From Ochromonas danica (lineage: Eukaryota > Sar > Chrysophyceae > Chromulinales > Chromulinaceae): 64,000 nt of DNA. The notes beneath the pieces were generated by a model, which was given only the letters and a program-made list of their open reading frames with translations, did not search any database and was not told the DNA's origin. This document shows, piece after piece, positions 20,390 to 44,130 of this stretch. Position 1 is the first letter of the stretch; the number at the start of each line of letters is the position of its first letter. The translations under genes were made by a program, and so were the position numbers. The stretch spans positions 161,005 to 225,004 of the forward strand of contig VKHL01000033.1 in assembly GCA_015146655.1 (NCBI GenBank), in the 5' to 3' direction.

Positions 20390-21112
20390 TTAGGCAGTGC
20401 TTTGAGCCTTAGGTTCCTTCCTGGAGCGAAGATGAACATGAGAATGAGCACGAGTGGTCTTGGAGGACGTCTGGCTGGTCTTTGCCTTCGTTGCCACGGC
20501 ATTCACCGTATTAGAACCTTCAGCATAATCATCCGTGGCGTTAGGATCATTGTTGTTGTTGGTATTGGTGTTGTCATCATCGCTAGTAGCAGGAGGGGAA
20601 GGGTCATTTTGGTCAGCTGACCCACCAGTTGCCGGAGGATTGTTGGTGGTGTTGTCATCATTGCTAGTAGCAGGAGGGGAAGGGTCATTTTGGTCAGCTG
20701 ACCCACCAGTTGCCGGAGGATTGTTGGTGGTGTTGTCATCATTGCTAGTAGCAGGAGGGGAAGGGTCATTTTGGTCAGCTGACCCACCAGTTGCCGGAGG
20801 ATTGTTGGTGGTGTTGTCATCATTGCTAGTAGCAGGAGGGGAAGGGTCATTTTGGTCAGCTGACCCACCAGTTGCCGGAGGATTGTTGGTGGTGTTGTCA
20901 TCATTGCCGGGATTAGGCACGGGATTAGCTGAGCCACCAGATGGTGGATTGCCATTAATCTCATCGTCACTAGGATTGGCAGCAGAAGGAGGGTCATTGG
21001 AACCACCAGTAACAAACCCATCATCATCTGACAGTACCACCACCACACCAGAATGGACAACTAGTACATGGAAAAGAAGACAAAGGAAGAAAAGAAGAAA
21101 GAAAGTTTTCAT
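20390..21112 (-). CDS. Secreted repeat protein, DDD/LR-tail family, member 1
   Basis: 240 residues from the ATG at 21112 (an in-frame GTG lies just upstream). A strong signal peptide (KTFFLLFFLCLLFHVLVV) is followed at once by GVVVVLSDDDG, the hydrophobic-then-DDD motif shared by other small secreted proteins in this window. The centre is four near-identical 27-residue repeats (DDNTTNNPPATGGSADQN plus a short DPSPPATS-type spacer) with one N-x-T glycosylation sequon each. The C terminus is basic and His/Arg-rich with HVHLRSRKEPK, a variant of the family's LR tail. Composition (Pro, Asn, Asp, Thr, Gly) suggests an extracellular, wall or scale-associated glycoprotein. No known enzyme domain is present; function is unknown. 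Confidence 0.7.
   Translation of the reverse strand: MKTFFLLFFLCLLFHVLVVHSGVVVVLSDDDGFVTGGSNDPPSAANPSDDEINGNPPSGGSANPVPNPGNDDNTTNNPPATGGSADQNDPSPPATSNDDNTTNNPPATGGSADQNDPSPPATSNDDNTTNNPPATGGSADQNDPSPPATSNDDNTTNNPPATGGSADQNDPSPPATSDDDNTNTNNNNDPNATDDYAEGSNTVNAVATKAKTSQTSSKTTRAHSHVHLRSRKEPKAQSTA
20567..20905. repeat. 81-bp coding tandem repeat, about four units
   Basis: Units repeat every 81 bp (for example GTCAGCTGACCC at 20612 and 20693) and are almost base-identical, so the array is recently homogenised. The unit length is a multiple of three and keeps the reading frame. Confidence 0.9.
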
Positions 21113-22030
21113 TCTAGGCACTAAATAGAATAAAGTAATAGCGAAGAAGCAATGCGAAACCTTGACTAGACGGCAGATTGAGCTGATACCAGGGATAGTG
21201 AGGGTCGGAACTCAAAACTGCTGAACGGTCGCTCCTGACCCGACCGTTCGGATTTCAGATTTTCCTCCAAAAACAAAACGAAACCGCTCTGCACTCTTTC
21301 GAAAAATGCGTTTTTGTTGTTGCCGCTCTAAACAGACGATTTGATCCAAAAAAAAATGAAATCCGCTGGGAGATGGATAGAAACGAAAGATGAAACTTCT
21401 TGGTAATCTATCTGCTTTATGGATATCATCTGAGCTTTATGTTGTAAATGATGGTGAATCATCATCCAATGATGTTGCTAATCACCCTCCCAGTACTGTA
21501 ATAGCAGACGGGCTGCTTGACCAGTGCTAAGAAATCGATCACAGTAAAATGATAAAAACTACTAAAAAATTACATCCCTTGGGGTGAACAAAGGCATGTT
21601 AATTTCTTGTCAAGAAGCGGAGCTCTTGTTTACAGCACTATTTATGAGTTAGGTACCAATAATTCATTGGTTCTGTGGAAGTTTCAAGACAATTATAGTT
21701 TTCTTTGCTTACACGAATTGAGAGCAAGTATATTTAACATCAAAAAATTGATCTCACAAGAGCAAGCACATCTAACTCGCTCATACATTTAACTTTGTCT
21801 CGACGGTTGGCCACGCGGAATGTTAACTTTCACATCAAATTGACAAACAATCTCATCAAATTGATCAACATATATAGAATTACGCAACCACAGGCATAAC
21901 AAACACATATAAACTACATTTGAAGACACACGCACACATATATGAATTGCTTGATATGAAAGAAGTATGCTTGTTGTTACTCTCTATAGGTTATCGTAAT
22001 TGCTTATAAACCTTAGAATATCGTTGTCCT
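21113..22030. other. Intergenic
   Basis: Holds the probable promoter of member 1, with a palindromic CGGTCGC...GACCGTTCGG patch near 21226-21250. The rest is AT-rich with no supported gene. Confidence 0.4.
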
Positions 22031-22408
22031 TTATGGTCCACGAAGATACTTAGGGGAATTGTCAGTAGGTCCTGTAATAGTGGAGGACTTCTCCTCTTTC
22101 TCTTCCTCACTGCTCTCACTGAAACGGAGAGAAATCTTGGAAATGCTTTCTCGTTTTTGCTCCTCTCCATACACAATTTCATCATCAGAAGGCGTAGGGC
22201 TAGAATGAGACCAATCGTCATCATCCCCGGCAATATCATAAACTAATCCTCTGTCTGGAGGTAGAGCAGATTTTCCCTGATCATGAGAGGGATCACCAAA
22301 ATCATTATCATCATCTACTATAAATAATACTAAGGAGGAGTTCACTTTGTCAACGAAATGAAGAAGAATCAGACAAGAAAACAACAGAAGAAGGAAGAAC
22401 GGCTTCAT
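22031..22408 (-). CDS. Small secreted acidic protein, DDD/LRG-tail family, member 2
   Basis: 125 residues, single exon. A signal peptide (FFLLLLFSCLILLHF) ends near VNS, followed by SLVLFIVDDDNDF, the family's hydrophobic-plus-DDD motif. The middle is Asp/Glu/Ser-rich and probably disordered. The protein ends SPKYLRGP, the C-terminal family motif, close to NAPKYLRG in the paralogue at 42070-42567. No cysteine framework or enzyme domain is visible. Shared DNA near the 3' end (CCACGAAGATA) also links it to that paralogue. Function is unknown; a secreted structural or mineral-binding role is possible from the acidity alone. Confidence 0.7.
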   Translation of the reverse strand: MKPFFLLLLFSCLILLHFVDKVNSSLVLFIVDDDNDFGDPSHDQGKSALPPDRGLVYDIAGDDDDWSHSSPTPSDDEIVYGEEQKRESISKISLRFSESSEEEKEEKSSTITGPTDNSPKYLRGP

Positions 22409-23223
22409 GATGAATCAATAATGTTTTTGATATAGAAAGTCAAAGTCAAAAGACAAGAAAATGATAAGATTATAAAAAAATGGTCAAAAAATTAGTCTAG
22501 TAGTTATATATTGATTCTTCCTTTTATATAATAGTCTGTCAACTATTTAATAATACTTTGACAATCGACCACAAGAATGTGCTTCTATATGAAAATGATC
22601 GTTCCATTGAACAACTCTCCCTTCCATGCCACTTCTGTTCTTCTTCTCTGGTTTTCAACCGTTCGACTCCAATCATAACCACCTAAATAGTGACTTTTAA
22701 ATCTATATTTCAATCTTTTGGCGGTTGCCGAATTTTGGTTGGTCCCAAACAAATTCTTGCTAACATTATCTCAACATCCCTCACGAACCTTCCTGAACTT
22801 ATTTACATCATGCTTGATTCAATTATTTTCTGTATTCTCCAATGCTTTCGCTTCTTTTTGAACTTCATTGTGAAGTCTTAGGACTACATACACTATAGTA
22901 AACTATTACGTCAATAAAAAATGCAATCTCCTAAGATTATGGATAGGTTATTTTTTACATCTCTTGATCAGCTTAATGAAAACTACATTTTAACGATTAA
23001 TACGTGACTACAGTTCACAACTATTGAAAAAAAATATTTTAAAAAAAGGATTAACGTTCATCTAACAACCGAGTAGGATCAAATGTAACGTAATTCATTG
23101 TCAAACAGTAGTGGTATAATGACAATGAGCGATTTATATAGCGCAAACTATTATAGAATGTCCGAATTCCATAAGACACTCTTCCAAATGGAAAAGAATA
23201 TTTTGTTCTCTTACTTCGGACCA
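22409..23223. other. Intergenic
   Basis: AT-rich spacer including poly-A runs near 23020-23050. No gene supported. Confidence 0.4.
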
Positions 23224-23700
23224 TTATTCTGATCCGCGAAGAAAATATCTGGGGGCTCTTCTAACGAATCTATCTTTATTTTTCCAATATTCTTCTTCTT
23301 TATCCTCTTCTAGAGCCTCTTCAATATTTTCCCATATCTTCTCATCATCATCGTCCTTGTCCTCATCCTCCTCAGCATCCTCAAGAAATGTGTAGACATC
23401 ATCATCCTCCTCTTCTAGTGTCTTATCAACATTCTCCCTTATCTTCTTATCGCCTTTGCCCTCATCCTCATCAACATCATCAAGGTAATAGAATGTGTAG
23501 ACATCATCATCCACTGTAACTAATGGCATAGGAGGAGTCAAAGAACAAGGTTTTGTTGCAGGTAGACTAGTGGGTTGTTGACTCTTTGCATCACCACCAC
23601 CAAAAAGAATATGTTCACCATAAAGAAGAAATTGCACAGCACGAAGAACTAGAAGAAGAACGAAGAAAGATCTTGTCGACTCAAAAGTAAACACAGTCAT
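23224..23700 (-). CDS. Acidic protein with N-terminal hydrophobic segment, DDD/LRG-tail family, member 3
   Basis: 158 residues from the ATG at 23700; the open frame continues upstream to a GTG but without another ATG. The N terminus has a hydrophobic stretch (FFVLLLVLRAVQFLLYG) that could be a signal peptide or anchor. It is followed by PLVTVDDDVYTF, a displaced form of the family motif, with DDDVYTF repeated about 40 residues later in a second acidic block. The C terminus reads RRAPRYFLRGSE, matching the family tail. Upstream in the same frame (about 23720-23880) lies another hydrophobic run, so an unrecognised upstream exon is possible. Confidence 0.6.
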   Translation of the reverse strand: MTVFTFESTRSFFVLLLVLRAVQFLLYGEHILFGGGDAKSQQPTSLPATKPCSLTPPMPLVTVDDDVYTFYYLDDVDEDEGKGDKKIRENVDKTLEEEDDDVYTFLEDAEEDEDKDDDDEKIWENIEEALEEDKEEEYWKNKDRFVRRAPRYFLRGSE

Positions 23701-24361
23701 TTGTACTGTATTGTCTAAAGGAAAAATAAAAGCTATGCAAATAATAAAAATATGAAATAGAGAGGAGAACAATTGATGCAAATCTTTCCAAGGAGGTCCT
23801 TTTATTTTAATAATAGTTACTTCTGGTGGCAGTTGCAACAAGAAGGATGGGATAACTATTTGACTGTTCTTGGTTACTTCCTTCACTTCACCGAAGCAAC
23901 AGCATGTCAGATGTGCCGGCGGATCTGTTTATTAAGTTAACAAGCTGTGGAAGGTTCGGCGAGTACTTCTGTGTGGATTTGAAACTCACACTTTTAGACT
24001 TTGTTGCGAGAATTTAATTCGAATATTATTCGTAAATTCGGGAATTCGTAAATTCGGGAATATTCCTGAGTACTCGAAATCCCAGAACTCGGGACTTGGG
24101 ACTCACCACTGGGACTCATCTGGAAGTCGAGTCCCCGGAAGTCGAGTCCGCGAGTCCGGGACTCGACTCATGCGGGGTGTGCCGCCAATGTCGGCGGAAT
24201 TCCACTTTGGGGATTTCGTGTTTTCGTGTTTTCGAGTGTTGTCGAAGATAAAAACAGTGAAAAGTCGAGTTTTTTCTCGTCTCTCTTATCTCGCACTCGC
24301 GAATTGTCAGTTCACGGCAAACTCGCCCCACTCAGAGCTGGAAAGTCACCCCTGGTACAAA

Positions 24362-24467
24362 ATTTTCGTTTTCGGTTTTCGGAGTTGTGATGACTCGGAG
24401 TTGAATGGCTGTTATAACTCGCTTTTTATGACTTTTCTTCAGGATTTTCGTTTTCGGTTTTCGGAGT
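24362..24467. repeat. Direct repeat, 24 bp, two copies 82 bp apart
   Basis: Copies at 24362-24385 and 24444-24467 are identical (core TTTTCGTTTTCGGTTTTC). A similar word also occurs near 24213, so a degenerate array is likely. Confidence 0.7.
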
Positions 24468-24732
24468 CTGCTGATGACCATCCCGAAAAGACCGTTTATG
24501 CTGCCAAAAAACAGACTTTTTCCCAACGAAAACGAAAAAAACGTTACAGGGGTGACTTGCCGGGCCAAACTGTCGTGAGTCAATGATAACGACTTTTGAG
24601 AAACGAGTTTGTAACTCTTGTGAAAATCCGAATTCCCGAAAGTGGCGCGATTCCGCGATCGCGCCAGTCCTCTCCACTGGTGATGGTGAAGTTGCTTGGA
24701 GATCTTTGGCAGTGTAGGTCTTTGGTGATCAA

Positions 24733-24848
24733 GTCTTAAAGTTGAAATTGTAATCGTAAATTATAATTACTATCATTGGAGATCCGATCAGTCTTAAAGT
24801 TGAAATTGTAATCGTAAATTATAATTACTATCATTGGAGATCCAATCA
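24733..24848. repeat. 58-bp tandem duplication
   Basis: Units 24733-24790 and 24791-24848 are almost identical (start GTCTTAAAGTTGAAATTG), pointing to a recent tandem duplication. Confidence 0.85.
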
Positions 24849-25371
24849 ACACTGTGCCTCACACTTTTGTTCTCTCCCCGAAAATATAGGAAAGGAGTGA
24901 TGGAATAGATGGAATTTGCGTGGAATTATCTGGAATGATCGACAATGACAAAAAAAGCATGGCTTTGTTATAGTACTTTCTCTCTCTTCGTCGTTGTTTC
25001 TATTTCTCTTCTTTCTCTTATATTAATTATTGTATTTCTTTGGCAACTATCAATGGTAAATAATCTTCTAAGCTCTGTCTTTCCCAGTTGTTAGAAGCAT
25101 GCCTTCCAACCACTACATGTACTTCATACTAGAACCTATTAAGCTCTACAAAAGGTGAAAGAAGGCAATGGTGGCGACATTTAACAAACTCTTACACAAC
25201 CATTGTGTGGAGACTCTCATACTATTATTAAACATACAATTCCAGCATTCTCCTTTACGATCTTGGGATTCTTTAATAGCCAATCAAAGCGAATTCACAA
25301 TCTTTATATATCCTATCTTTCTCGTGAAGAGCTATTGAAATCAAAAGCTCATCCATTGGTAAGAAGTTGTC

Positions 25372-26800
25372 TTACTTGCCTCGAAGATGCCTTTGCTTAC
25401 TCCTTGCCACGAAATCAGAAATTCGGTTGATGACCTGATTGAAGAGCTGGTCAACCAATTCAGCACTTCCGAATTGATTAGTGTCAAGATCTTTCTCGTT
25501 AAAAGAAGGTTGTGACATCCATTTTCCATCTGATGTAGCACCAAAGGATTCATCGGAAGACACTCCTTCAGGGGAATGGGCAGGATAAGGAGGTGTATCG
25601 TTGAATTCACCGTTGTCTGAAGAACTGTTGAATTCAGGAGGTGGGGGAGGAGGGTTACCTCCAAATGGAGGTGGAGGAGGAAGAGGGAAGTTTTCATCAA
25701 AGCCATCAGAAGACCCATTGAAGTCAGGAGGTGGCGGAGGTGGAGGAGGAGGATTACCTCCAAATGAAGGAGGAGGAGGGAAGTCACCATCAAAGCCATC
25801 AGAAGACCCATTGAAGTCAGGAGGTGGCGGAGGTGGAGGAGGAGGGTTACCTCCAAATGAAGGAGGAGGAGGGAAGTCACCATCAAAGCCATCAGAAGAC
25901 CCATTGAAGTCAGGAGGTGGCGGAGGTGGAGGAGGAGGATTACCTCCAGGAGGACCACGAGGACCACCACTTCCTCCTCTGCCCCCAGGTGGTCCACCAA
26001 CTTGGCCTGATGGTCTATTACCATGAGGCTGCTCTAATCGACGAGCAGAAGAGGTCAAGTCCGTTGACTGGCTGTCAGCGGCAGGTGGTGGCGGAGGAGG
26101 TGGAGGGAAACCACTGTTGTTAAAACTACCAACAGAAGCATTGAAATCAGGAGGAGGAGGTGGAGGATTTCCTCCTGGAGGACCACGAGGACCACCACTT
26201 CCTTCTCCTCCAGGGGGTCCTGAAGAACCTCCATTACGGCCATGATCGCCTTGGCCAACCAGTTGACGAGGAAGAGAAGATAAGTCCATTGGCTTGTTAT
26301 CCACGGCAGAATGGGTTGGAGGGCCCGGAGGATGATTGCTGTTGTTAAAACTGCCAGCAGACCCATTGAAATCAGAAGGAGGGGGTGGGGGATGACTTCT
26401 TCCAGGTGATCCACCTCCCTGACCCTGACCTGGCCCATCATGGCGATCGTTTTGGTCTAATTGACGAGCAGAAGCACCATTCATCTTATTCCCATTCCTA
26501 TTGGGAGGACGAGGAGGTTTGCCTCCTCTGCCACTCTCTCCAGGAGTGGCTGTCTTGACATTATGGTGTTGAATACCTGTATCGAATGTGGTAAAAGGTG
26601 AGAGGAGTCGATGAGAGAAGAAAAGAGGACTTTCTACAGTCCCTACCTGGTGGGCCATGTACATTACTTCGCAAGTGATAGTCACGAAGTCTTTTCTCTC
26701 TGTCTACCACACCAGCTGGCACAGCAGCAGACACAGAAGAGATCACAGCGAGACTGACAACAAGTAAAAGGATCAGACAACGCAAAGAAGAGCTTTTCAT
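25372..26800 (-). CDS. Secreted proline/glycine-rich repeat protein, LRG-tail family, member 4
   Basis: Two exons, 26800-26647 and 26576-25372, join in phase 1 across a 70-nt intron to give 452 residues. Exon 1 encodes a clear signal peptide (CLILLLVVSLAVISSVSA) and an Arg-rich stretch, KRLRDYHLRSNV. Exon 2 is Pro/Gly/Asn/Ser-rich, with three near-identical 31-residue repeats (polyproline, DFNGSSDGFD, then FPPPPSFGGN) and earlier diverged copies. The protein ends in ARSKQRHLRGK, resembling the LRG tails of its neighbours. It lacks the hydrophobic-DDD motif, so membership rests on the leader, low complexity and tail. It resembles extensin-like wall proteins in composition only. Confidence 0.7.
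25714..25992. repeat. 93-bp coding tandem repeat, three units
   Basis: The word ACCCATTGAAGTCAGGAGG recurs with 93-bp spacing (CCC at 25714, 25807, 25900). The units are nearly base-identical and in frame. Confidence 0.9.
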
Positions 26801-27690
26801 CCAAGCAGTGTGAGCTTGATCAATAATGAATGAAAAGAGTTTAGGTCAATAGGACTAAGTTATTTCAAGGAAAGCGAATGATTGGCAACAAGAGTTGTTG
26901 ATTTGATTCTGTTGAGGATGGGTCATAATGCAAGCTTCTTTCCCAGTCATGACAGCAAGAAGAGGCGAAAGGAGGAGAGGAACGTGAAATGTACCCGCAA
27001 TGGGTCGTCACACGCATCACAATAATAGTTCACACTCGTAAGGCGCATATCACACGGAAACGACACTTTCAGAAGTAAAAATTGCAGTTTCCAAAATTTT
27101 CACTTTTGGTGTCGTTTTCGATGTCACACGTCGCGACCAAATCGCATTTTCACTTTCCCAGAATTTCACTTTTCGGTGTCGTTTTCTGTGTCACACGTCA
27201 ACAAATTGTCGAATTTCATCCTCATCATCATCTCACAATTGATTGATTTTGTCCTTTCGCGACGCTTTCTTCGAGCCAATCCTCTTCTGAGCCTACCCCT
27301 TCATCATCTCCATTGGTAGACGTCAACGGGTAGCCGCTACAGTCCTGGAGGACAATACGAGACAAGCCATAACAATGAAACATGATGAGGCCAGGATTCT
27401 TCGTCTTCCTGCTGATCCTGGTGCCATGTCCAACTGGACAGCTGCCTTGCGTGACAAGATCAGGGCTCAGCTAGATACTGATGCTGCCGGCGCTGGAACC
27501 GTCTTGCTGAGAAGTTTAATGAGTACAACTATCAGTATACTAACGCATGCATTATTCTAGGTCGTCTCGATGCTAATGGATGTTTGTCCCGGTAGCTGAG
27601 AGGGAAGCTATCGCTATGTTTTGCCATGATATCACTCCTTCTGCAACGGGTCGACCGGCTTCGCACTCATTACCGCGATCTTGTGGATGT

Positions 27691-27764
27691 AATTGAAACT
27701 GGTCTCCGTATTCAGAACAAATTAGCAGCTTCATTTGTTCTGAATACGGAGACCAGTTTCAATT
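27691..27764. repeat. Perfect 32-bp hairpin
   Basis: Arms 27691-27722 and 27733-27764 are exact reverse complements with a 10-nt loop (TAGCAGCTTC). It lies within the putative inverted-repeat element. Confidence 0.95.
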
Positions 27765-28233: not shown

Positions 28234-28327
28234 ATCTTATTTCATGTCCAATCTCTCATTAGTAGGAGAATTGTTGGCGTCTCCAACAATTCTCCTACTA
28301 ATGATCAGATTAGACATGAAATAAGAT
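28234..28327. repeat. Near-perfect 44-bp hairpin
   Basis: Arms 28234-28277 and 28283-28327 pair with only a few mismatches and one gap, around a 5-nt loop (CGTCT). Confidence 0.92.
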
Positions 28328-33912: not shown

Positions 33913-36162
33913 ATGTCACAAGAGGTTATTTCTCAGAGAAGAGCAATGAGTCTAGGCCCTAGTCAGACACAATCTTCACATTTCCTTCCTAGCTATCCTT
34001 CTCAACACTCTATCCTATCTAATAAATTACAACATGCTGGAGTGAGTGTTTTGACTTCTCTTACTAATACTACCTCTTCTGTCATCTCTATCCATTCTTT
34101 ACCACCACCACCTATATCAGATTCAGGGGTAGGAGCAGGTACAGGAGGGGGTACAGGAGGTAGTGCAACAACAACTACTACTGCCAATGCCAATGAAACT
34201 CTATTTCAACCCATTACAGCAGAAGATCAACGTTTAGCAATGTTAGGATATAAAGATCTAAATAAAGTGTGTGGTACAGATGGTCTCTCTTATTATCGTG
34301 AAGAACTATGTGGTGCTTGTGGAATGCTTCATAGTAATCCTGATGTTTTAGATACTTATCATCATTGTGATCGTTGTCATGCTGTTATACGTCCTATTGA
34401 GACATTACAAAAACGATATAATACAGATAGTAAACAAGTCTCAAAACCAGGTTTAGAAGTCTTATTTGCTTCATATGGAGATCCCTATTCTGCTAAAACA
34501 GCTAAAGAGGTTACAAGACAAATGAAACGTCGCTTAAGAAGAAAGAAGATTAATAATCGTAACATTCAACAACAGCCGCAGCAGCAGCAACCAATAGCAG
34601 AAGTGGATAGTGATGATGAGGATAATGAACTAGGAGATTCAATATTATTTACAAAATCAGACAATGCAAATGAAATTTTCGGATTTGATCCATCACCAGG
34701 AGAAAATAAACAATTACGATTACGTTATCGTCTTTCACAAACTCATTTTGCTATGTTAATATTAGATTTTAATCCACAAGGACGTCTACCCCAAACCTTT
34801 CTATTAACTATTCCAAAAGTACAATATTTACGTATTTATAAAGCAAAATATGGACATCCAAAAGGATTTTCTTCAACAGGTAGAATGAGTTTTAATGTAC
34901 AAGAAATCTTACAATCTTTAGTAGATCAAAATAATGGTTATTATTTATCAATTTCATGTTATCAATCATTAAAACGTATATTTGGTGATCCATGTCCAGG
35001 ATATACAAAAGATTTAACAATACAATATGAAATATTAGGAAAATCAGGTGAAGGTCATTATGATGTCATTGAAGATTGCTTAACAAAGAAAGTCTATTTA
35101 GCTTCTATACCAAGAATTGCACCTATTTTATTTGTGAAAAAAGCAATTTATGGTATGACACCAAGAACCAGAAAAGAACAATTAGATAAATTAAATAAAG
35201 AAATACATCAAATTGAAAGATTAGAACATTTACAATCACAAGGTATTATTTTAGAAAGTTCAGATTATAAATTATTATTATCAAAAAATAAATTAATGGA
35301 AATGAAAAATGAAATTTTACAAACACCCTGTCGTTTTTATGATATTACCAAGAAAATTCAAGAAATTATTGATATTCAACAAAAAGCTAAAAATCAAAGT
35401 CAATTAATTTTATTATCATATCAATTTGATCCAAATTTTAATTTTGGTAATCCATGTCCAGGATATCCAAAAATCATAGAAATTGAATTAGATTGTCCAG
35501 GTCATGATAGTGAGAAATTAACAAAAAGTGAAGATATGACAGAGACAGGATATTCAACCAATTCGATTACTATTAAACAAGGATATTTTAATGTTTTAGT
35601 TTATGATGAGATTGAAACAGGGAAAGGAAAGATGCAAGAATCAATTGAATTTCAAAGTCATTATGTTTATCCACGTATTATTATTACTCGTGCTATCTAT
35701 GGGGAATTCCCTCCATCACCTACTACTAGTGGTAATGGTAGTGGTGCTAGTCGCGGTAGTGGTGGTACTGGTGGTACTAGTGCTAGTCGTGTTGGGACTA
35801 CCAGTGGTAGTGGTAGTGGTACCAGAGGTGGTGGTGTCAGTGGTAGTGGTTCAAGTCGCTATGATGAAGTTAATAGTGATAATACAAGATATATCATGGA
35901 TGTCACTGCTAATATACAAGCCTTAACACATGGCGAAGCCTTAACTATTCCTAAAGGAACTAATCTAACCAAATTGTTTCGAAATGATCCAAGTCCAGGG
36001 AGAAAGAAACAACTTCGTATTTCCTATATCTCCAGAGGATATCGTGGTAATCTTCGTATTCGAGAGAAAGATGACTACTTGGTAGCAGGATTAGAATTAG
36101 GGTATCCACCACAAGCAACAGTCAATGATGATGATGCTAATCATCGCTCTGGAACTCTCTAG
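33913..36162 (+). CDS. Four-module beta-rich protein with C4 zinc motif, unknown function
   Basis: Single-exon gene of 749 residues. A low-complexity leader (1-100) is followed by a C-x2-C-x15-C-x2-C motif at Cys133, 136, 152 and 155 (CGAC...HHCDRC), probably a zinc knuckle. The rest holds four diverged copies of one module: a strand ending A-x-YG (LEVLFASYG, RIYKAKYG, VKKAIYG, ITRAIYG), a variable insert, then (G/N)-(D/N)-P-(S/C)-PG followed by K-x-L-x-(I/L)-x-Y (DPSPGENKQLRLRY, DPCPGYTKDLTIQY, NPCPGYPKIIEIEL, DPSPGRKKQLRISY). Modules lie near residues 187-275, 305-375, 405-530 and 590-705; a Gly/Ser/Thr insert splits the last. The codons of modules 2-3 are markedly AT-rich. I do not recognise a named family with certainty. 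Confidence 0.72.
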   Translation: MSQEVISQRRAMSLGPSQTQSSHFLPSYPSQHSILSNKLQHAGVSVLTSLTNTTSSVISIHSLPPPPISDSGVGAGTGGGTGGSATTTTTANANETLFQPITAEDQRLAMLGYKDLNKVCGTDGLSYYREELCGACGMLHSNPDVLDTYHHCDRCHAVIRPIETLQKRYNTDSKQVSKPGLEVLFASYGDPYSAKTAKEVTRQMKRRLRRKKINNRNIQQQPQQQQPIAEVDSDDEDNELGDSILFTKSDNANEIFGFDPSPGENKQLRLRYRLSQTHFAMLILDFNPQGRLPQTFLLTIPKVQYLRIYKAKYGHPKGFSSTGRMSFNVQEILQSLVDQNNGYYLSISCYQSLKRIFGDPCPGYTKDLTIQYEILGKSGEGHYDVIEDCLTKKVYLASIPRIAPILFVKKAIYGMTPRTRKEQLDKLNKEIHQIERLEHLQSQGIILESSDYKLLLSKNKLMEMKNEILQTPCRFYDITKKIQEIIDIQQKAKNQSQLILLSYQFDPNFNFGNPCPGYPKIIEIELDCPGHDSEKLTKSEDMTETGYSTNSITIKQGYFNVLVYDEIETGKGKMQESIEFQSHYVYPRIIITRAIYGEFPPSPTTSGNGSGASRGSGGTGGTSASRVGTTSGSGSGTRGGGVSGSGSSRYDEVNSDNTRYIMDVTANIQALTHGEALTIPKGTNLTKLFRNDPSPGRKKQLRISYISRGYRGNLRIREKDDYLVAGLELGYPPQATVNDDDANHRSGTL

Positions 36163-36165
36163 ATC

Positions 36166-36166
<1 letters not shown>

Positions 36167-36235
<69 letters not shown>
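36167..36235. repeat. (CA)n microsatellite
   Basis: Uninterrupted AC dinucleotide tract of about 69 bp, starting a few bases after the stop codon of the preceding gene. Confidence 0.97.
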
Positions 36236-36237
<2 letters not shown>

Positions 36238-36989
36238 GTATATATACTGTATATATTAGAAAGATTGTGTGTTTGTGAAGATGATTATCTTTGTCATAGT
36301 CATATGATATAGTTGCACCTATTACTACTATGTTAGTATAGTAGTATTGGTAGTAGTCATAAGGATGACAAGGTCTTGATATCATGGTCTACTATGCTAG
36401 AACCAATGTCTATGTGCAATGGTAGAGTTGAAAACTGAATGACGACTACTTCAACTTCTCTCAACGAGAACGTCAACCTCAACTTCATACATTATCCGCT
36501 TTAGACAATTTTGTCATTTGGGATAGCAGAGGAAGTAGTTAGTTGTGTTATAGTGTATGGTGTACTGTACACTAGGCTACAGTAAGTAGTTGTAGTATAC
36601 TACCCTAGACCATGGTAGGCTGTGCTGTAGTATCAGATTGCTACAGTGGTATGCTACACTATACTATAGGTAGTACTACTAGTAGTATAGTGTGATGTGA
36701 TGTTTATGTGATGACATCTGATTTACTACTAGTATATAGTGTAGACCAGGATAGGATATGATGAGGTCTTCTAGTAGGTGTAGGAGATGCATCACCTTGT
36801 GTTTTGTCCTTCAGTAAATAGGTCAGCAAGTAGTACTTGGGGAGGAGTGGTTCAGCTATCTCAGACTTGATTAGATACCATTCTTAATTATCATGCAATA
36901 CTTGTATGTTGTATGATAATGATGTGGTAGCGGTGAATGAAGAGAAGCCCATAGTTTAAGTGCTATCCCTGAATGCGATAGCTACAGGG

Positions 36990-37640
36990 GTAAGTTTAAG
37001 TGCTACAGGTGTAACAGTAGCTGTAACTGTAACTATAGCTGTAGTGGTTGTGTTCTAGTAGTAGCTGTAACAGTAGCTGTAACTATAGCTGTAGTGGTTG
37101 TGTTCTAGTAGCAGGTGTAACAGTAACTGTAGCTGTAACTATAGCTGTAGTGGTTGTGTTCTAGTAGCAGGTGTAACAGTAACAGTAGCTGTAACTATAG
37201 CTGTAGTGGTTGTGTTCTAGTAGCAGGTGTAACAGTAACAGTAGCTGTAACTATAGCTGTAGTGGTTGTGTTCTAGTAGCAGGTGTAACAGTAACAGTAG
37301 CTGTAACTATAGCTGTAGTGGTTGTGTTCTAGTAGCAGGTGTAACAGTAACAGTAGCTGTAACTATAGCTGTAGTGGTTGTGTTCTAGTAGCAGGTGTAA
37401 CAGTAACAGTANNNNNNNNNNGCAGGTGTAACAGTAACAGTAGCTGTAACTATAGCTGTAGTGGTTGTGTTCTAGTAGCAGGTGTAACAGTAACAGTAGC
37501 TGTAACTATAGCTGTAGTGGTTGTGTTCTAGTAGTAGCTGTAACTGTAGCTGTAACTATAGCTGCAGTGGTTGTGTTCTAGTAGCAGGTGTAACAGTAGC
37601 TGTAACTCTAACAGTAGCTGTAACTGTAGTGTTGTAGGGG
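36990..37640. repeat. 56-bp minisatellite array, with sequence gap
   Basis: The word GTGGTTGTGTTCTAG recurs at 37094, 37150, 37206, 37262 and 37318, a period of 56 bp, with a shorter 50-bp spacing at the left edge. The unit is itself built from GTAACAGTA / GTAACTATAGCTGTA sub-repeats. Ten Ns at 37412-37421 interrupt the array, so its true length is not known from this assembly. Flanking DNA on both sides (36240-36990, 37640-37870) is non-coding, rich in TAGTAG/CTACTA words. Confidence 0.95.
37412..37421. other. Assembly gap (10 N)
   Basis: Ten undetermined bases inside the minisatellite; probably a collapsed or unresolved repeat junction. Confidence 0.98.
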
Positions 37641-37874
37641 CAGGTGTCAGTTGTTGGTGGGGATACTTGCTCTTTACTCTCTATCTCTTCCTAGCTGAGA
37701 GGAAGAGAAAGAGTAGGTGTACTTGATTATCTTATTAACTTAACCTACCCTATCTTCCTCCTCCTCCTGCTACTACTATCATACAAAGCACACATCGTTC
37801 AGTCCAGCACTATACCACACACACTCACTCACTCACACTACCCTCCCCACTCTCTTTGTCCATGCGACTCATAC

Positions 37875-38384
37875 TCACCTGCTAGTCATCATACCTGGTA
37901 GTCCACCTGTGGAGGTAGAAGACGAGGTAGTGGAGGAGGTGGTAGTAGTGGTAGTAGTAGGGAGAGGTCGTTTATTGCTAGGACCTTGACTCATCGCTAC
38001 AAAAAACATACCCAACATAATCATCAAGGAGCCTGAGATCCATGAGCTAGTCAAGTCTTCTCCTAGTATGAGGTAGCCACACAGTCCACTTGTCAAGAAA
38101 TTAGTGGCCGAGGTGATGACAATGACGACTACAGTATGATTTTGTTCCATGCCTTGCATGAAGAAGTTGACTACAGCACCATTTAAGAGTAAAGTTAATA
38201 ATAAGAGAAAGAAACGAAATGTCCAAGCAGCATATCCACAGAATTCATGTGACCATGACCAAGCAGGATGAGTTATACATAACGTTTGGAAATGATCTAA
38301 GAGAATTGAAGAGGAGGTAAAAGCTATCTTAGCAAAGACTGTAGCTAATCCACCACAGACACCACATAATAATAATGGTATCAT
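37875..38384 (-). CDS. TMEM42-like membrane protein (EamA/DMT superfamily)
   Basis: 169 residues with four or five hydrophobic spans. GVCGGLATVFAKIAF at the N terminus, GAVVNFFMQGMEQNHTVVV in the middle, and SATNFLTSGLCGYLILGEDL followed by a last span match the TMEM42 half-size drug/metabolite transporter fold. The Thr/Ser-rich C-terminal tail is low complexity. The stop falls at AGCAGG|TGA, but AGCAG|GTGAGTATG is also a strong splice donor. An acceptor at about 37696 (TCTCTCAG|C TAG) would replace the last residue Arg with Ser and stop at once, so the true end may be a two-exon form. Function of the family is poorly known; transport of a small metabolite is inferred. Confidence 0.72.
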   Translation of the reverse strand: MIPLLLCGVCGGLATVFAKIAFTSSSILLDHFQTLCITHPAWSWSHEFCGYAAWTFRFFLLLLTLLLNGAVVNFFMQGMEQNHTVVVIVITSATNFLTSGLCGYLILGEDLTSSWISGSLMIMLGMFFVAMSQGPSNKRPLPTTTTTTTSSTTSSSTSTGGLPGMMTSR

Positions 38385-38460
38385 TACTAATTAATTTCGC
38401 TTTATTTTTACTTTTTGCAGAGGTGGAAGAAAGAAAGAAAGCTGAAAGCTATTCTCAAGC

Positions 38461-38473
38461 TTTCTATATGATG
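38461..38473 (+). promoter_or_regulatory. TATA-like element upstream of tRNA-Ser copy 1
   Basis: TTTCTATATGATG begins 46 bp before the tRNA. The second copy has TTTCTATATAATG 43 bp upstream, and both have GGTCCACC just before the gene. Conservation in otherwise different flanks suggests a Pol III upstream promoter. Confidence 0.5.
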
Positions 38474-38506
38474 CTTGACAAAGCGGTGTTATGGTCCACC
38501 ACACAA

Positions 38507-38622
38507 GGCTGTTTGTCCGAGTGGTTAAGGAGTCAGTCTCGAAATGAGTTAGGGAAATCCTTAATTCAATACGTGACAACTGATGGGAAATTCCCGCGCA
38601 GGTTCGAATCCTGCAGCAGTCG
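38507..38622 (+). tRNA. tRNA-Ser(CGA) with 34-nt intron, copy 1
   Basis: A full cloverleaf folds. The acceptor GGCTGTT pairs with AGCAGTC, discriminator G, as usual for serine. The D arm is TCC/GGA and the anticodon stem TCAGT pairs with ACTGA. The loop CTCGAAA gives anticodon CGA. A long variable arm GGGAAATTCCC marks a class II tRNA, and the T arm GCAGG-TTCGAAT-CCTGC contains a perfect B box. A 34-nt intron at 38544-38577 sits at the canonical position between 37 and 38; mature length is about 82 nt plus CCA. It decodes UCG. The exons are identical in copy 2. Confidence 0.96.
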
Positions 38623-38966
38623 GACCAAAATTACTTTTTTGTGTTTTAGCTTGTTGTCGAAGGAATTGGTGGTGAAGGGTGAATGAAACTAATAGCATAC
38701 TATCAACCTATTGGGTAAATGCTTTTGTTTCCCTATGAGTTGATGATCATGCTCCAAGAGCAACAACAACAACTTAGATCTAGTTATTTTCACTCTGCTG
38801 CTGCTGTTGTGTGTGATTTGGCAGGGGGATAAAAAAACGCGTTGTTTTTGATTCTGACAGCAGCAGAAGGCGAAGGGTGGATCCATTCCATTGGATAAGA
38901 TCCATCATCTTGTCTATCGACATCTAATAGTAGTATCTGTCCTAGTCCAGTCAGTCAGTGGTGATC
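38623..38966. other. Intergenic between tRNA and ENT gene
   Basis: Contains the Pol III terminator and, at 38882-38895, CCATTCCATTGGAT, a weak match to the TTCCATGGAA palindrome, about 75 bp before the ENT start codon. Confidence 0.4.
38635..38640 (+). terminator. RNA polymerase III terminator (T6)
   Basis: A run of six T residues 12 nt after the tRNA end, the usual Pol III stop. Confidence 0.8.
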
Positions 38967-40727
38967 ATGTCTCATCCTTCACATAAGGAAGACTCTGAAC
39001 AACCACCACTACCACCATCACAATCACAATCTAGAAAAGGAGGAGGAGGAGAATGGAGAGGTAGTCGAGAAGAAATCATCGCTTATTTCATTTTCTTCTT
39101 CCTTGGTGTAGGCAATCTCTTTCCATGGAATGCCTTCATTACAGCTGCTTCCTATTATCAATCTGCCTTTTGTCAAACTTCATATGAAAATACATTTTTG
39201 TCATTTTTCTCCACTTTATACACTTTCTCTCAACCTGTAGCATTAATTGTGAATATCCTCTATAATCGTGTCTTTACGATACAATCTCTTGTCCTCTATC
39301 CACTCATTCTCTTCACTATTGTCTTCTCTATAACTACCCTCTTTGTCCTCTTACCTGATATCTCCGCTTCTACCTTATTTGCTACAACATTAGTCTCACT
39401 CTTTCTATGTGGATTTGCTGGTTCTGTTATGAATGGTGGACTCTTTGCTTTAACAAGTATTCTACCACCTTGTCATACTGCTTCCATTATGAATGGACAA
39501 GCATTAGCAGGATTAATTGTATCCATTGTTAGTCTTATAGTAACGGCTAGTAGTCCATCTGACTGTGGAGGAGATGATGATAGTAATGATGATGATGGTG
39601 ATTCGTGTTCGTCAACAACTTCCTCAGCTAATCGCTATGGTGACTTTGCTTATTTCCTTGTCGCTTGTATTGTCTTAGGTGGATGTATTTGGTTCTTCCT
39701 TTATTTGATTCATATGCCATGGATTGTACAAGAAATGCATGCAAAGTTACGTCATGCTATACATGAACAACAACATGAAGTACTTAATGCTCTTCATAGT
39801 AGAGAGAAACAAGAAGAAGCAGAGGAGAGGAGGAGGAAGAAGAAGCAGCAGAAGGAAGTAGAGGATCTACCTGTCTTACCAAAGAGTAGTATTGATGGAG
39901 AAGAATTTTTGGATGTTAACATTTCTTCTAGAGAGTCTTCCATCGAACACCAACACAAGCAGCAGCAGCATCATCAACAACAACCACCACCTGCTGAGAA
40001 AGAATATCATCAACGATCATCTTTATCTATTACAACTATAGCAGCTGTAGTAGATAGTCATTATGAGCCTTCTCCTAGTAGTACTAGTACTTCTTCCTAT
40101 CATCCTAACCCTTCAACTTCTCTCTCTTCAACTTCCTATCTTACTACATTATCATCTCATAACTTTGATATTCATCATACTTATGAAGTCATTTGTGAGA
40201 TTAAAATAGCAGCTTATTCTGTCTTTATCACCTATTGTGGATCATTAATGGTCTTCCCAAGTGTTATGATTCAAATTACACCATTGTCATCCTGTCATAC
40301 TTCTCGCTTCTTTGGTGATCTTTGGTTACCTGTTCTGTATCTTCTTTTCAATGGTGGAGATTTTACAGGTCGTGTACTAGCACAACATGTTAAACATTGG
40401 TCATGTTTTGATGTTGAACGATTACATTGGGTAGCAACAATACGATTAATTCTACCTCTTCTCTTCTTGTTTTGTCATATTGATGGAGGAAATCAATTAG
40501 TTACACTCTTTCCAACTGATGTCATTCCTCCTATTCTTGCTTGGTCAGTAGGTATATCAAATGGTTTGCTTGCGAATACCTCTATGATGCTTGGACCGAC
40601 CTTAGTCGATGAGAAGAATGCTGGTTTAGCAGGAACAATCATGAACTTCTGGTTAACCTTTGGTCTGTTAGTTGGATCAATGATCTCCTTCTTTTGTCTC
40701 TATTTGGTCACAGGTAGTGCAGGTTAA
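38967..40727 (+). CDS. Equilibrative nucleoside transporter (ENT/SLC29 family)
   Basis: 586 residues, single exon, from the ATG at 38967 (an upstream in-frame GTG is not used). The first membrane segment, IAYFIFFFLGVGNLFPWNAFITA, is the family hallmark: the GxGxLxPWNxF signature. About eleven hydrophobic spans follow, six before and five after a long cytoplasmic loop (about residues 255-405) that is Lys/Glu-, Gln/His- and Ser-rich. Late spans include FGDLWLPVLYLLFNGGDFTGR and the terminal LAGTIMNFWLTFGLLVGS, both typical. ENTs carry nucleosides or nucleobases down their gradient across plasma or organelle membranes. The loop expansion is lineage-specific low complexity. Confidence 0.93.
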   Translation: MSHPSHKEDSEQPPLPPSQSQSRKGGGGEWRGSREEIIAYFIFFFLGVGNLFPWNAFITAASYYQSAFCQTSYENTFLSFFSTLYTFSQPVALIVNILYNRVFTIQSLVLYPLILFTIVFSITTLFVLLPDISASTLFATTLVSLFLCGFAGSVMNGGLFALTSILPPCHTASIMNGQALAGLIVSIVSLIVTASSPSDCGGDDDSNDDDGDSCSSTTSSANRYGDFAYFLVACIVLGGCIWFFLYLIHMPWIVQEMHAKLRHAIHEQQHEVLNALHSREKQEEAEERRRKKKQQKEVEDLPVLPKSSIDGEEFLDVNISSRESSIEHQHKQQQHHQQQPPPAEKEYHQRSSLSITTIAAVVDSHYEPSPSSTSTSSYHPNPSTSLSSTSYLTTLSSHNFDIHHTYEVICEIKIAAYSVFITYCGSLMVFPSVMIQITPLSSCHTSRFFGDLWLPVLYLLFNGGDFTGRVLAQHVKHWSCFDVERLHWVATIRLILPLLFLFCHIDGGNQLVTLFPTDVIPPILAWSVGISNGLLANTSMMLGPTLVDEKNAGLAGTIMNFWLTFGLLVGSMISFFCLYLVTGSAG

Positions 40728-40732
40728 AGCAG

Positions 40733-40795
40733 CAGTGGTAGCGGTAGTGGTAGCGGTAGTGGTAGTGGTAGTGGTAGTCGCGGTGGTGGTGGTGA
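40733..40795. repeat. (GGTAGT)n / GGTAGC simple repeat
   Basis: Hexamer-based tract right after the ENT stop codon. Confidence 0.85.
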
Positions 40796-40883
40796 GGGTA
40801 GTAGGAGCACCCGGGACCTACTGCCGTCTCTGTCTCTCTTGATTGATGACGAGGAAACAAGGATCGTCGTCGTCTTGTTCTTG

Positions 40884-40937
40884 TTCTTCTTCTTCTTCTT
40901 CTTCTTCTTCTTCTTCTTCTTCTTCTTCTTCTTCTTC
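40884..40937. repeat. (TTC)n microsatellite
   Basis: About 18 TTC units. Confidence 0.95.
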
Positions 40938-41575
40938 ACACTTGGTGTGATGACTATTCTGTTCTATAGTATTCTATTCTCTATAACAATACTATTATTG
41001 TTCCGTGGTTTGGGTGAGTAGTGTGGTACAGGACTAGTTGCTTTAGCATGGAGTAGTGGTAGTGGTAGTGGTGGTGAATAGTTGATAATGATGATGTGGT
41101 TATTGACCTCTTCACCCACTACTACTACTCACTCGAACTTTTGGAGGGATAGGCAATGAATGGGAACAGCATGTGGTAATGATAGACTAGTGGTAGCTGT
41201 GGTGATTATGTTGGAGGATTGATGACGATGCTATGAATAATCGTAAACTCATCTGTTCTTAGCAAACAAAGTATCGCATTTATTTCGAGACTTTGTAACT
41301 TGACTAAGAGATTCACTTGATATTCTTAATGAATGACTCTTTCTTTTCTTTCCTTTCTGACTGATCTTAATCACTTAGCATGGGTTGGATACCCTAGTGT
41401 CTGTTGTCTTGTCATGTGGTACAGTACTATAACCAATCTGTCTAGTAGGGTATTTATAACAGATTCTGATGAATTGTATAGGTAGTCCAATTACTATAGG
41501 GGTTATCACTTTACTATTTAAATAGTATCAGTGATACTATTCGGCGGAACCCGTTAGTTATCATCCTATAGGTGG
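40938..41575. other. Intergenic with a MITE-like element
   Basis: Non-coding, with GGTAGTGGTAGT words near 41055 and the inverted-repeat element at 41458-41555. No gene supported. Confidence 0.4.
41458..41555. mobile_element. MITE-like element, copy 1
   Basis: The left end (AACAGATTCTGATGAATTG) pairs with the right end, whose reverse complement begins AACGGGTTCCGCCGAATAG. A related element with the same kind of ends lies at 59359-59432. TATA/GTTA flanks would fit insertion at TA. Length is 98 bp, with no coding capacity. Confidence 0.6.
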
Positions 41576-42690
41576 AATGCAAGAAGACAAAATCTACACT
41601 CAATGAGATTATAAACTATTCTTAATAGAGTTACCAAAATCGGAAATGTTCTTCATCATAACCAATCAAAGTCATTACATCAATCCAAAGCACATATAAA
41701 CATGTAGCACAGCACAGTAGATTACAGAAAAGCATAGAATAGAGTAAGTAGTGGTTCTTGTGCGATTTCACCATCAGAGAAGGGACTATGGAGAATTCCA
41801 TCTCTTTGCAGTAGTAGTAAACAGCACAACAACATATGTACAGTACAGTATAGGAATCATGTTATTATCTGAAGTATGTTTTGAGATCATGAACATCGAA
41901 CATGCTCGTTTAGAAAGCACGACAATTTTTAGGTTCCATAATGATAGTAATAGTGATATGTAGCACATGTAGTGATTGTTATGGGGGTTGTGGTAGCACT
42001 GTTAGAGTTTGTAAGTTAGTTAACATCGAAAGATTGCTGATTGTTTGTTGTTAGTCAGCAGGAAATTGTTCAGAAGGTCTTGTAATGAACTTTTCCTCGT
42101 TTGGTTCCACGAAGATATTTTGGAGCATTATTGTCAGATGGCTTTACTCTCACAGATGCTTTTTTGTTTTCACTCAAAGCATTGGCATTGGCATTATCTT
42201 CTGCTTCTTGTGAGCCTTTGCTATTAAGACCTCCATCTTCTTCTTCTTCTTCTTCATCAGTAGTAGTAGAAGCAAGGATGTCATTGTTATTATCATCATC
42301 TTTATCGTCACTATAACTCTCATAATAATAATAATAATAATAATCATCTTCATAGTCATCAGTATTATAGTTATCATCATCTCCATTGATGATGTCATGC
42401 ATCGAGTAACTATCTGCAGAAGAAGAAAAAGAAGAAGAAGAACGTTGAAGTTTATCACCTACATGATCATCATCTACTACAGTGAAGACAATCCATGAAG
42501 CTTGGACAGTATAAAAGGAAACGATAAGAGCAAATGAAAACAGAACAAGAAAGTAAGAAATCTGCATTTGTTGTTATAATATTATTTGACTTGTGTTGAG
42601 GAGGAGGTAATGAGAAATGACAGAGAGAGAGAGATAATGACCACAGAATAAGTTCCCAGCTTAGAGACTACCTGTAAGACTAGGAGAGAT
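41576..42690. repeat. Segmental duplication, copy 1
   Basis: Similar over about 1.1 kb to 43067-44130, including the gene (42070-42567), its downstream flank (shared CGACAATTTTTAGGTTCCAT) and upstream flank (GACTTGTGTTGAG, AATGACCACAGAATAAGTTC). Confidence 0.85.
42070..42567 (-). CDS. Small secreted acidic protein, DDD/LRG-tail family, member 5
   Basis: 165 residues, single exon. A signal peptide (ISYFLVLFSFALIVSFY, then VQA) is followed by SWIVFTVVDDDH, the family motif. The middle is dominated by Asp, Tyr, Ser and Glu runs (a seven-Tyr block and a six-Glu block). The C terminus reads NAPKYLRGTKRGK, then a short VHYKTF extension. The paralogue at 43670-44038 shares the leader almost exactly but has a shorter middle and ends right after its LR motif, so this one has gained length by microsatellite-like expansion (TCATCA, AATAAT, TTCTTC tracts in the DNA). 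Acidic/tyrosine composition hints at mineral or matrix binding, but function is unknown. Confidence 0.75.
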   Translation of the reverse strand: MQISYFLVLFSFALIVSFYTVQASWIVFTVVDDDHVGDKLQRSSSSFSSSADSYSMHDIINGDDDNYNTDDYEDDYYYYYYYESYSDDKDDDNNNDILASTTTDEEEEEEDGGLNSKGSQEAEDNANANALSENKKASVRVKPSDNNAPKYLRGTKRGKVHYKTF

Positions 42691-43066
42691 GTTTGACAAC
42701 ATTGTTTGTTTGGCTCATCTTCTCTTGGCACTTCTGCATCCACTGCTCATGCTATGGTGTCATTGTCACCAAAAAACAGCAGCCGGCAACAAGATTTTCG
42801 TTGGGACGTGACCGTTCAACTCTTGGGAAGAGGGTTTAAAACTCCACTTTTATGCCTTTTTCCAACTGATTGTTCTTGTTTTTGGTCGATGGGGATTTTG
42901 ATTGGATTTTGTAGTTTTGAGGCAAAAGTGGCAAAAGACGGGAAATTTGGCAAAATCTGAGAATCGCACTGCGATTGTCAATTGTCCAAAGTCGAATCGA
43001 ATGACAACTATACCTTACATGCCTAGAAGGGTGTTTGTAGTATTATCCTATTAAATCATAGGCGAA
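42691..43066. other. Unique spacer between duplicated segments
   Basis: Non-coding; no gene supported. Not shared between the two copies of the segmental duplication. Confidence 0.4.
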
Positions 43067-44130
43067 AAGAAGACAAGAAAACAAACCCTCCCCAATGCGA
43101 TTATAAAATAGTCTTAATAGAGTTACGAGATTGAGATCGTCATAGCAATCAAAGGAAGCATCACGACAATCAAAAGTCATTACATTGATCAAAAGCACAC
43201 TTAAACATATAGACTAGTATAGAAGTAGAGTATAGTAGATTACAATATAGTATATTTCAGAGTGACATAGAATAGAACAAGAGTAATACCATCAGAGAAG
43301 GGAAGATGGAGAATTTCATCTCTTTACAGTAAAACAGTAGAACACCATATGTACAGTATACAGTAAAATAGGAATTATATTATTATCTGAAGTATGCACC
43401 GAGATCATAAATATCGAAGATGCTCTTTATAATAGAACAAAACTCGACAATTTTTAGGTTCCATAATGGCATTGATAAGGATAATAATAACGATAGTGAT
43501 AATCATAGTAGTAGTGATTGTTGTTTGTGATTTGTGGTAGAACTACTAGACCTAGAGGTAGTAAGTTAGTTAATGATGCAAGTTGTTATAGAAAGTTGAT
43601 TGTTATTGTTGATTGCTATTGCTGATTGTTACTCTTCGAAGCTCCATGAAAAATTGTCAGAAGGTCTCGTTAGGTACTGCGAAGAAATCTCGGAGCACGA
43701 TGAACTTCTTCTTCTTTTTGTGGGTCTTTGTCACTAATAAATGGTTCATCATCATCGTCATCAGTAGAATCGGTCAGGAAGTCATAATATTCATTATCAT
43801 CATCATCACTCTCATAATCATCATCATTGTCATCGTCATCAATATTATAGGTATCATCATCATCATCATCGACGATGCCATAAATAGAATTGTCCTCTTG
43901 AGTAGGAGAAGAAGATCGAAGGTCAACACCTGTACGATCATCATCTGTTACAGTGAACACAATCCATGAGGCTTGGATAGTAGAAAAGGAAAGAACAAGA
44001 GCAAGAGCAAAGAGAAGAAGAAAGTAAGAAATTTGCATTTGTTGTTATAATATTATTTGACTTGTGTTGAGAGGAGAGGTAATAGCTAACAGAGCAAGAT
44101 AATGACCACAGAATAAGTTCCTAGCAGAGA
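43067..44130. repeat. Segmental duplication, copy 2
   Basis: Diverged partner of 41576-42690, about 1.45 kb away in the same orientation. Confidence 0.85.
43670..44038 (-). CDS. Small secreted acidic protein, DDD/LRG-tail family, member 6
   Basis: 122 residues, single exon, paralogue of the 42070-42567 gene. The leader ISYFLLLFALALVLSFSTIQA is followed by SWIVFTVTDDDR. The body is very acidic (repeated DDDD, YNIDDDDND) and the protein ends HRAPRFLRST. Conservation of both ends while the middle changes freely suggests that the ends carry the function, for example sorting or processing, with the middle a variable acidic spacer. Confidence 0.75.
   Translation of the reverse strand: MQISYFLLLFALALVLSFSTIQASWIVFTVTDDDRTGVDLRSSSPTQEDNSIYGIVDDDDDDTYNIDDDDNDDDYESDDDDNEYYDFLTDSTDDDDDEPFISDKDPQKEEEVHRAPRFLRST

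What the first reader, a model, noticed from the sequence alone, without database searches (positions are those of the whole stretch)
20390..44038. A family of six clustered secreted proteins defined only by their two ends
Six minus-strand genes (20390-21112, 22031-22408, 23224-23700, 25372-26800, 42070-42567, 43670-44038) each have a signal peptide or N-terminal hydrophobic segment, a low-complexity middle and a short C-terminal basic tail with LR(G): KYLRG, KYLRG, RFLRS, RYFLRG, RHLRG, VHLRS. Five also share a hydrophobic stretch followed by DDD (VVVLSDDDG, LFIVDDDND, VFTVVDDDH, VFTVTDDDR, LVTVDDDVY). The middles differ completely (acidic, Asn/Thr repeats, polyproline), so selection seems to act on the ends, as expected for sorting or processing signals. 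Diatom silaffins and oomycete RxLR effectors also combine leader peptides and short Arg/Leu motifs, but the position and sequence differ here. This looks like an undescribed secreted or matrix protein family.
Basis: partly seen in the sequence, partly recalled or inferred. Interest (0 to 1): 0.85.

Follow-up and report, generated by a model that had tools for sequence, protein, structure and literature searches.

The report
Local cluster of secreted acidic proteins
In an unnamed alga, a handful of neighbouring genes make small, probably secreted, acidic proteins that share short motifs at both ends around fast-changing repetitive middles; it looks like a small family born by local gene duplication rather than a genome-wide sorting signal.

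Summary
Five minus-strand genes (20390, 22031, 23224, 42070, 43670) carry a signal-peptide-like start, a hydrophobic stretch followed by DDD, and an LR tail. The sixth (25372-26800) needs a 70-nt intron, lacks the DDD head and is a proline-rich protein. 42070 and 43670 are tandem duplicates. 22031 is a distant homologue matching 42070 at both ends; 23224 and 20390 are tentative members. The genome is a 31 Mb photosynthetic eukaryote, probably an ochrophyte. Three whole-genome tail patterns were near or modestly above control level; every strict match I inspected outside the cluster lay in a short or out-of-frame stretch. Protein searches with four of the five found no convincing member elsewhere, and 160 kb more of the contig added none. 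In the duplicate pair the N-terminal coding DNA is about as conserved as the flanks, so selection on the ends is not shown there; the synonymous-only PKYLRG difference between 22031 and 42070 points that way. Best reading: secreted, cysteine-poor, acidic, disordered extracellular proteins with slippage-prone triplet-repeat middles. Boldest open reading: precursors of a C-terminal [AS]P[KR][YF]LR[GS] peptide.

The parts
43670..44038 (-). 122-aa acidic protein with signal-peptide-like start; head SWIVFTVTDDD, GAT-repeat middle, tail APRFLRST at the stop; tandem paralogue of 42070-42567
42070..42567 (-). 165-aa paralogue; head SWIVFTVVDDD, Asp/Tyr/Glu-rich middle, APKYLRGT followed by a 10-aa extension that aligns with DNA beyond the stop of 43670 (probable stop loss)
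22031..22408 (-). 125-aa distant homologue; head SLVLFIVDDD, tail SPKYLRGP at the stop; last 20 aligned positions 55% identical to the matching part of 42070
23224..23700 (-). 158-aa probable member; LVTVDDDVYTF with a second DDDVYTF inside, acidic middle, tail RRAPRYFLRGSE
   Evidence: no significant whole-protein match
20390..21112 (-). 240-aa possible member; head GVVVVLSDDD, four copies of an NDDNTTNNPPATGGSADQNDPSPPATS-like repeat, tail HVHLRSRKEPKAQSTA
   Evidence: no significant match elsewhere
26577..26800 (-). First exon (26800-26647, signal-peptide-like) and 70-nt GT-AG intron (26646-26577) of the proline-rich neighbour
25372..26576 (-). Second exon of the proline-rich protein ending RHLRGK; not counted as a family member (no DDD head)
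42568..42687 (-). 5' flank shared with 43670 (at least the last 26 nt before ATG identical; 78.6% over 112 aligned positions)
41670..42069 (-). 3' flank shared with that of 43670 (76.4% over 313 aligned positions)

Best explanation
A small, apparently lineage-specific family that arose by local duplication on one contig and encodes secreted, cysteine-poor, strongly acidic and presumably disordered extracellular proteins. Shown: tandem duplication of 42070/43670 with shared flanks; weak but two-ended similarity of 22031; acidic composition; triplet-repeat middles whose lengths differ between duplicates while both frames stay open; no convincing member elsewhere in the searches made. Inferred: signal peptide cleavage just before the hydrophobic strand (-3,-1 residues VxA/IxA/VxS; rule recalled); export to the surface or matrix, where the Asp/Glu/Tyr/Asn/Pro middle acts as a flexible cation-binding polyelectrolyte; the short beta-prone head and the basic-aromatic tail dock the chain to partners or to neighbouring acidic chains. 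The middles change fast because GAT/GAA/TAT triplets slip; the ends look constant mainly because they are not repetitive, with some added constraint on the tail.
For: Paralogue pair E=9.9e-18, 49% identity; 22031 E=0.0065 and 0.0139; 23224 only 0.28. Shared flanks. 22031 vs 42070: N-terminal 35 aa E=0.007 and C-terminal 20 positions E=0.011 in a five-protein comparison without low-complexity filter. PKYLRG in 22031 and 42070 differs by two synonymous changes only. Net charge -15 to -31 and 0-1 Cys in the five mature chains. No Pfam family at its cut-off for any of the six. Other 160 kb fetched of the contig: none. Whole-genome patterns and protein searches: none convincing outside the cluster.
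Against: Secretion rests on a crude hydrophobicity rule and a recalled -3,-1 rule; 23224 fails the filter. 20390 and 23224 have no significant alignment to the others. The genome patterns miss serine TCN codons, the YFLRG form, motifs at other distances from the stop and, in two of three patterns, all Leu codons but CTT. 42070 itself was not used as a genome query. The matches at C203 and C82 were not examined. Disorder and the docking role of the ends are not tested.
Confidence: 0.5

Rival explanations
1. Secreted peptide precursors: signal peptide, variable acidic pro-region, and a short C-terminal peptide [AS]P[KR][YF]LR[GS]x released by proteolysis that acts as an extracellular signal, as in plant post-translationally modified peptide precursors.
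For: Architecture fits the hallmarks quoted for prePIPs: signal peptide, variable middle, conserved cysteine-poor C-terminus (passage). Conserved block of about 8 residues with Pro; basic residues precede it in 23224 (VRR|APRYFLRGSE) and 43670 (VHR|APRFLRST). Probable ancestral terminal position. Synonymous-only change of PKYLRG between 22031 and 42070.
Against: The N-terminal hydrophobic-DDD head is shared too, which a pro-region need not be. No basic residue directly precedes the block in 22031 or 42070. 20390's tail diverges. No receptor or protease was searched. Few members.
Confidence: 0.17
2. RXL-type processed matrix proteins like diatom silaffins, silacidins and cingulins: K/R-x-L sites mark cleavage by an RXL endopeptidase, in an organism with a silicon-transporter-like gene.
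For: RXL motifs after the signal peptide or at repeat ends are described for diatom biosilica proteins (passages). 43670 has RFL; 25372 has RHL plus three internal RXL: 4 against 0.67 expected, p=0.003. One silicon-transporter match, 46.1 bits over a cut-off of 26.8.
Against: In the five family members R-x(1,2)-L is not in excess (p 0.26-1.0); 22031 and 42070 have K, 20390 has V. The RXL in 25372 lie partly in internally repeated units, so they are not independent. Silica formation in this organism is not shown.
Confidence: 0.1
3. Chance: unrelated secreted acidic proteins in which GAT repeats give DDD and common residues give LR; only 42070/43670 are related.
For: Post hoc patterns; DDD frequent in acidic chains (43670: N pattern in 10% of shuffles); whole-genome tail patterns near control; 20390 and 23224 without significant alignments.
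Against: Leave-one-out p-values and joint-end shuffles of 0-0.12%; 22031/42070 match at both ends; five on one strand within 24 kb.
Confidence: 0.18
4. RxLR-like translocation effectors.
For: RFLR and RHLR match R-x-L-R.
Against: Motif is C-terminal, not after the signal peptide; no RxLR Pfam match at E<=1; the organism carries many light-harvesting matches.
Confidence: 0.02

Closest known systems
Plant post-translationally modified peptide precursors (prePIP, CLE, CEP)
   Same: Signal peptide, variable middle, short conserved cysteine-poor C-terminus with Pro (hallmarks from a passage)
   Different: No sequence relationship shown; extra conserved N-terminal head; basic flank only in some; no receptor shown; distant lineage
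Diatom silacidins, silaffins, cingulins and the RXL domain of Sin1
   Same: Secreted, low-complexity, acidic (silacidins), Arg/Leu motifs; the genome has a silicon-transporter-like match
   Different: RXL not in excess in the five; motif at the terminus rather than after the signal peptide; silica association untested
Oomycete RxLR effectors
   Same: RxLR-type string in one member (RFLR) and in the proline-rich neighbour (RHLR)
   Different: Wrong end of the protein, no Pfam match, photosynthetic organism
Lineage-specific secreted acidic disordered proteins (matrix or wall polyelectrolytes in general; recalled)
   Same: Composition, probable secretion, triplet-repeat middles, local duplication
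   Different: The two end motifs as such

Membership tests
Post-translationally modified secreted peptide precursor (prePIP/CLE type) | N-terminal signal peptide | tested here: inconclusive
   Crude hydrophobicity filter passes 4 of 5; 23224 fails because of an early Glu; no SignalP available
Post-translationally modified secreted peptide precursor (prePIP/CLE type) | Highly conserved cysteine-poor C-terminal block | tested here: inconclusive
   [AS]P[KR][YF]LR[GS] in 22031, 42070, 43670 and, with one extra residue, 23224; not 20390; 0-1 Cys
Post-translationally modified secreted peptide precursor (prePIP/CLE type) | Variable region between the two | tested here: met
Post-translationally modified secreted peptide precursor (prePIP/CLE type) | Cleaved, active peptide with a receptor | not testable with these tools
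   needs peptidomics and assays
Diatom RXL-processed biosilica proteins | RXL motif after the signal peptide or at repeat ends, more often than chance | tested here: not met
   five members: R-x(1,2)-L counts p 0.26-1.0; met only by the neighbour 25372 (p=0.003, partly repeats)
Diatom RXL-processed biosilica proteins | Association with biosilica | not testable with these tools
   only a divergent silicon-transporter match, 46.1 bits, in the genome
Oomycete RxLR effectors | RxLR within about 60 aa after the signal peptide (recalled) | tested here: not met
   motifs are C-terminal; no Pfam RxLR match at E<=1

The most novel reading that the evidence does not exclude
The genes are precursors of a C-terminal peptide [AS]P[KR][YF]LR[GS], released from an acidic pro-region and acting as an extracellular signal or pheromone in a photosynthetic stramenopile, with tandem copies diversifying the ligand.
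Probability: 0.1. Interest if true: 0.75.

Novelty: new member of a known kind. Interest (0 to 1): 0.33.

Why it matters
If real and expressed, it is a neat example of how secreted disordered proteins may evolve in algae: triplet slippage rewrites the middle, a lost stop adds a tail, and only short ends persist. If the tail proves to be a released peptide, it would open peptide signalling in this group of algae to direct test. As it stands it warns against reading a genome-wide targeting code into one local cluster of duplicates.

Tried and rejected
Rejected: general sorting or processing signal (genome patterns near or modestly above the reversed control: 22 vs 18, of which 7 of the 22 are one tandem array on C19; 28 vs 20; 10 vs 11). 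The 25372 matches on C60, which are proline-codon repeats. The C16 match, PRHLRG directly before a stop in a 44-residue frame with a Leu run: it overlaps a long open frame that looks like the real gene there. The C142 match PRFLRGS*, whose frame opens directly after a stop and overlaps another open frame. C30, C113, C175, C162 and C48, frames open for only 11-36 residues before the stop. The idea that the shared CTT codon of the tails proves descent, since CTT makes up 62% of 53 Leu codons in the five genes against 17% of 872 in 16 neighbouring ORFs. The idea that this bias marks high expression, since three light-harvesting genes use mostly CTC and CTG. A profile search of solved structures gave 10 matches at E<=1, the best E=0.0018 to a chain named P11, then 8 HSP90-beta chains and one splicing-factor chain at 0.73-0.92; I read these as composition and did not test that. 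The organism could not be named: 18S was not reached. I did not follow the silicon-transporter match.

Literature seen: PMC5525289, PMC4557024 and PMC4154866, passages found by term only; all other papers, search listings only (and one search listed none). The string PKYLRG is in no paper of that library; searches listed nothing like this family, and this is the only basis for saying that I found it nowhere in print.
Full report
Setting. The window is the last 64 kb of contig C33 (225 kb) of a 31.19 Mb, 337-contig genome. It is a photosynthetic eukaryote: 47 matches to the light-harvesting family PF00504. Apart from long multi-domain chains of one entry (9vfj), the best solved-structure match of one of these proteins is 9m4f chain t (light-harvesting protein XLH12, 100 bits), followed by VCPI-1 (90.5 bits) and fucoxanthin-chlorophyll proteins (60 of 406 matches shown). 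I infer an ochrophyte; the source organisms of those entries are recalled, not looked up. A divergent silicon transporter match (46.1 bits) lies on C2. The species is not identified.

Observation. The five DDD genes are real ORFs at the stated places; the sixth needs an intron of 70 nt (26646-26577) and lacks the DDD head. All are on the minus strand, in two groups, 20.4-26.8 kb and 42.1-44.0 kb, with plus-strand genes between them (a P-type ATPase, a DnaJ-C11-like protein and a nucleoside transporter).

How they are related. 43670 and 42070: E=9.9e-18, 49% identity, with shared 5' and 3' flanks. 22031: E=0.0065 and 0.0139 in genome searches; in a five-protein comparison without low-complexity filter it aligns with 42070 over the first 35 residues (E=0.007) and over a C-terminal stretch of 20 (KSSTITGPTDN-SPKYLRGP against KASVRVKPSDNNAPKYLRGT, E=0.011). 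23224: 0.28 at best in the genome search, but its tail RAPRYFLRGSE (p=0.0065) and head LVTVDDD (p=0.001) score above shuffles. 20390: no significant alignment, head p=0.0005, tail p=0.0145. I therefore rank membership: secure 42070, 43670; likely 22031; probable 23224; possible 20390; not 25372.

What changes and what stays. Between 42070 and 43670 the middle differs by insertions and deletions in triplet tracts, while both frames stay open and the two ends remain in frame. The extra ten residues of 42070 match DNA beyond the TAA of 43670; the simplest reading is a lost stop, which puts the ancestral LR[GS]T at the very end. N-terminal coding identity is 99/120 (82.5%), 5' flank 88/112 (78.6%; 83% over about 105 nt), 3' flank 239/313 (76.4%). 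dN and dS are 0.185 and 0.247 for codons 1-40, 0.148 and 0.378 for the signal peptide alone, 0.186 and 0.125 for codons 24-36 and 0.233 and 0.539 for the eight tail codons; the site numbers are small. The pair thus gives little sign of selection on the ends. The deeper pair 22031/42070 does at the tail: PKYLRG is kept with two third-position changes only (sequence).

Whole-genome tests. Pattern 1, P[KR][YFH]LR[GS]-like with codon CTT: 22 matches against 18 for the reversed pattern; three of the 22 (22031, 42070, 43670) end a frame of more than 100 residues within 17 codons of the stop. Of the other 19, one (C16) reads PRHLRG-stop in a 44-residue frame; it overlaps a long open frame on the same strand that looks like the real gene. 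Pattern 2, [KR][YFH]LR[GS]x-stop-like with CTT: 28 against 20; by reading the listed letters, 6 of 28 satisfy the strict motif and a true stop: three in this cluster (22031, 25372, 43670) and three elsewhere (C30, C113, C175). I fetched these three and two near-misses (C162, C48), and in 5 of 5 the frame is open for only 11-36 residues. Pattern 3, with all Leu codons and a preceding Pro: 10 against 11; two are in this cluster (22031, 43670); C142 is the only other strict match and its frame opens directly after a stop; C203 and C82 (PRYLRRG and PRFLRRC before a stop) were not examined; the other five fail the strict motif or lack a stop by reading the letters and were not fetched. These patterns do not cover TCN serine, YFLRG or other distances to the stop. 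Protein searches with 43670, 22031, 23224 and 20390 returned, outside the cluster, only C42 (E=7.6, an acidic stretch of a 758-residue frame) and C9 (E=0.23, a 471-residue frame that I did not read). 42070 was not used as a query.

Local background.

Mechanism. The common features are a signal-peptide-like start, strong negative charge (-15 to -31), almost no cysteine, repetitive middles, and a short hydrophobic head and basic-aromatic tail. I commit to extracellular acidic polyelectrolytes held by their ends (about 0.5); the docking role of the ends is inference. The peptide-precursor reading is second: it matches hallmarks stated for prePIPs (passage), but the head is conserved too and basic cleavage residues are not constant. 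The RXL reading fits the proline-rich neighbour 25372 (4 RXL against 0.67 expected, p=0.003, partly from internal repeats) better than the family.

Verdict. Interest is modest because function, expression and relatives are missing.

Noticed in passing
window 12409-14982 and 16294-19011 (+): Tandem pair of membrane histidine kinase / response regulator genes with long identical stretches (for example MIANVAHDLKTVSHPTLSCLTLSPPDDVCV) inside otherwise diverged proteins, suggesting gene conversion; each is interrupted at the same place, perhaps by a short intron.
   Followed up: no
window 25372-26800 (-): Proline-rich protein with signal-peptide-like start and repeated RXL motifs (RQL, RQL, RRL, RHL; p=0.003 by shuffling), reminiscent of diatom RXL processing sites.
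   Followed up: partly
G000:C2:248999-250126 (-): Divergent silicon-transporter match (PF03842, 46.1 and 32.2 bits, two stretches) in a genome that looks ochrophyte.
   Followed up: no
G000:C224:8673-16382: Four light-harvesting matches in head-to-tail array at exact 2407-base spacing.
   Followed up: no
G000:C19:208811-212238: Tandem array with units of 561 or 576 bases, seven copies seen through one pattern.
   Followed up: no
window 33913-36162 (+): Protein with three DnaJ-C11 C-terminal stretches and a SUEL lectin match below its cut-off, an odd repeat architecture.
   Followed up: no
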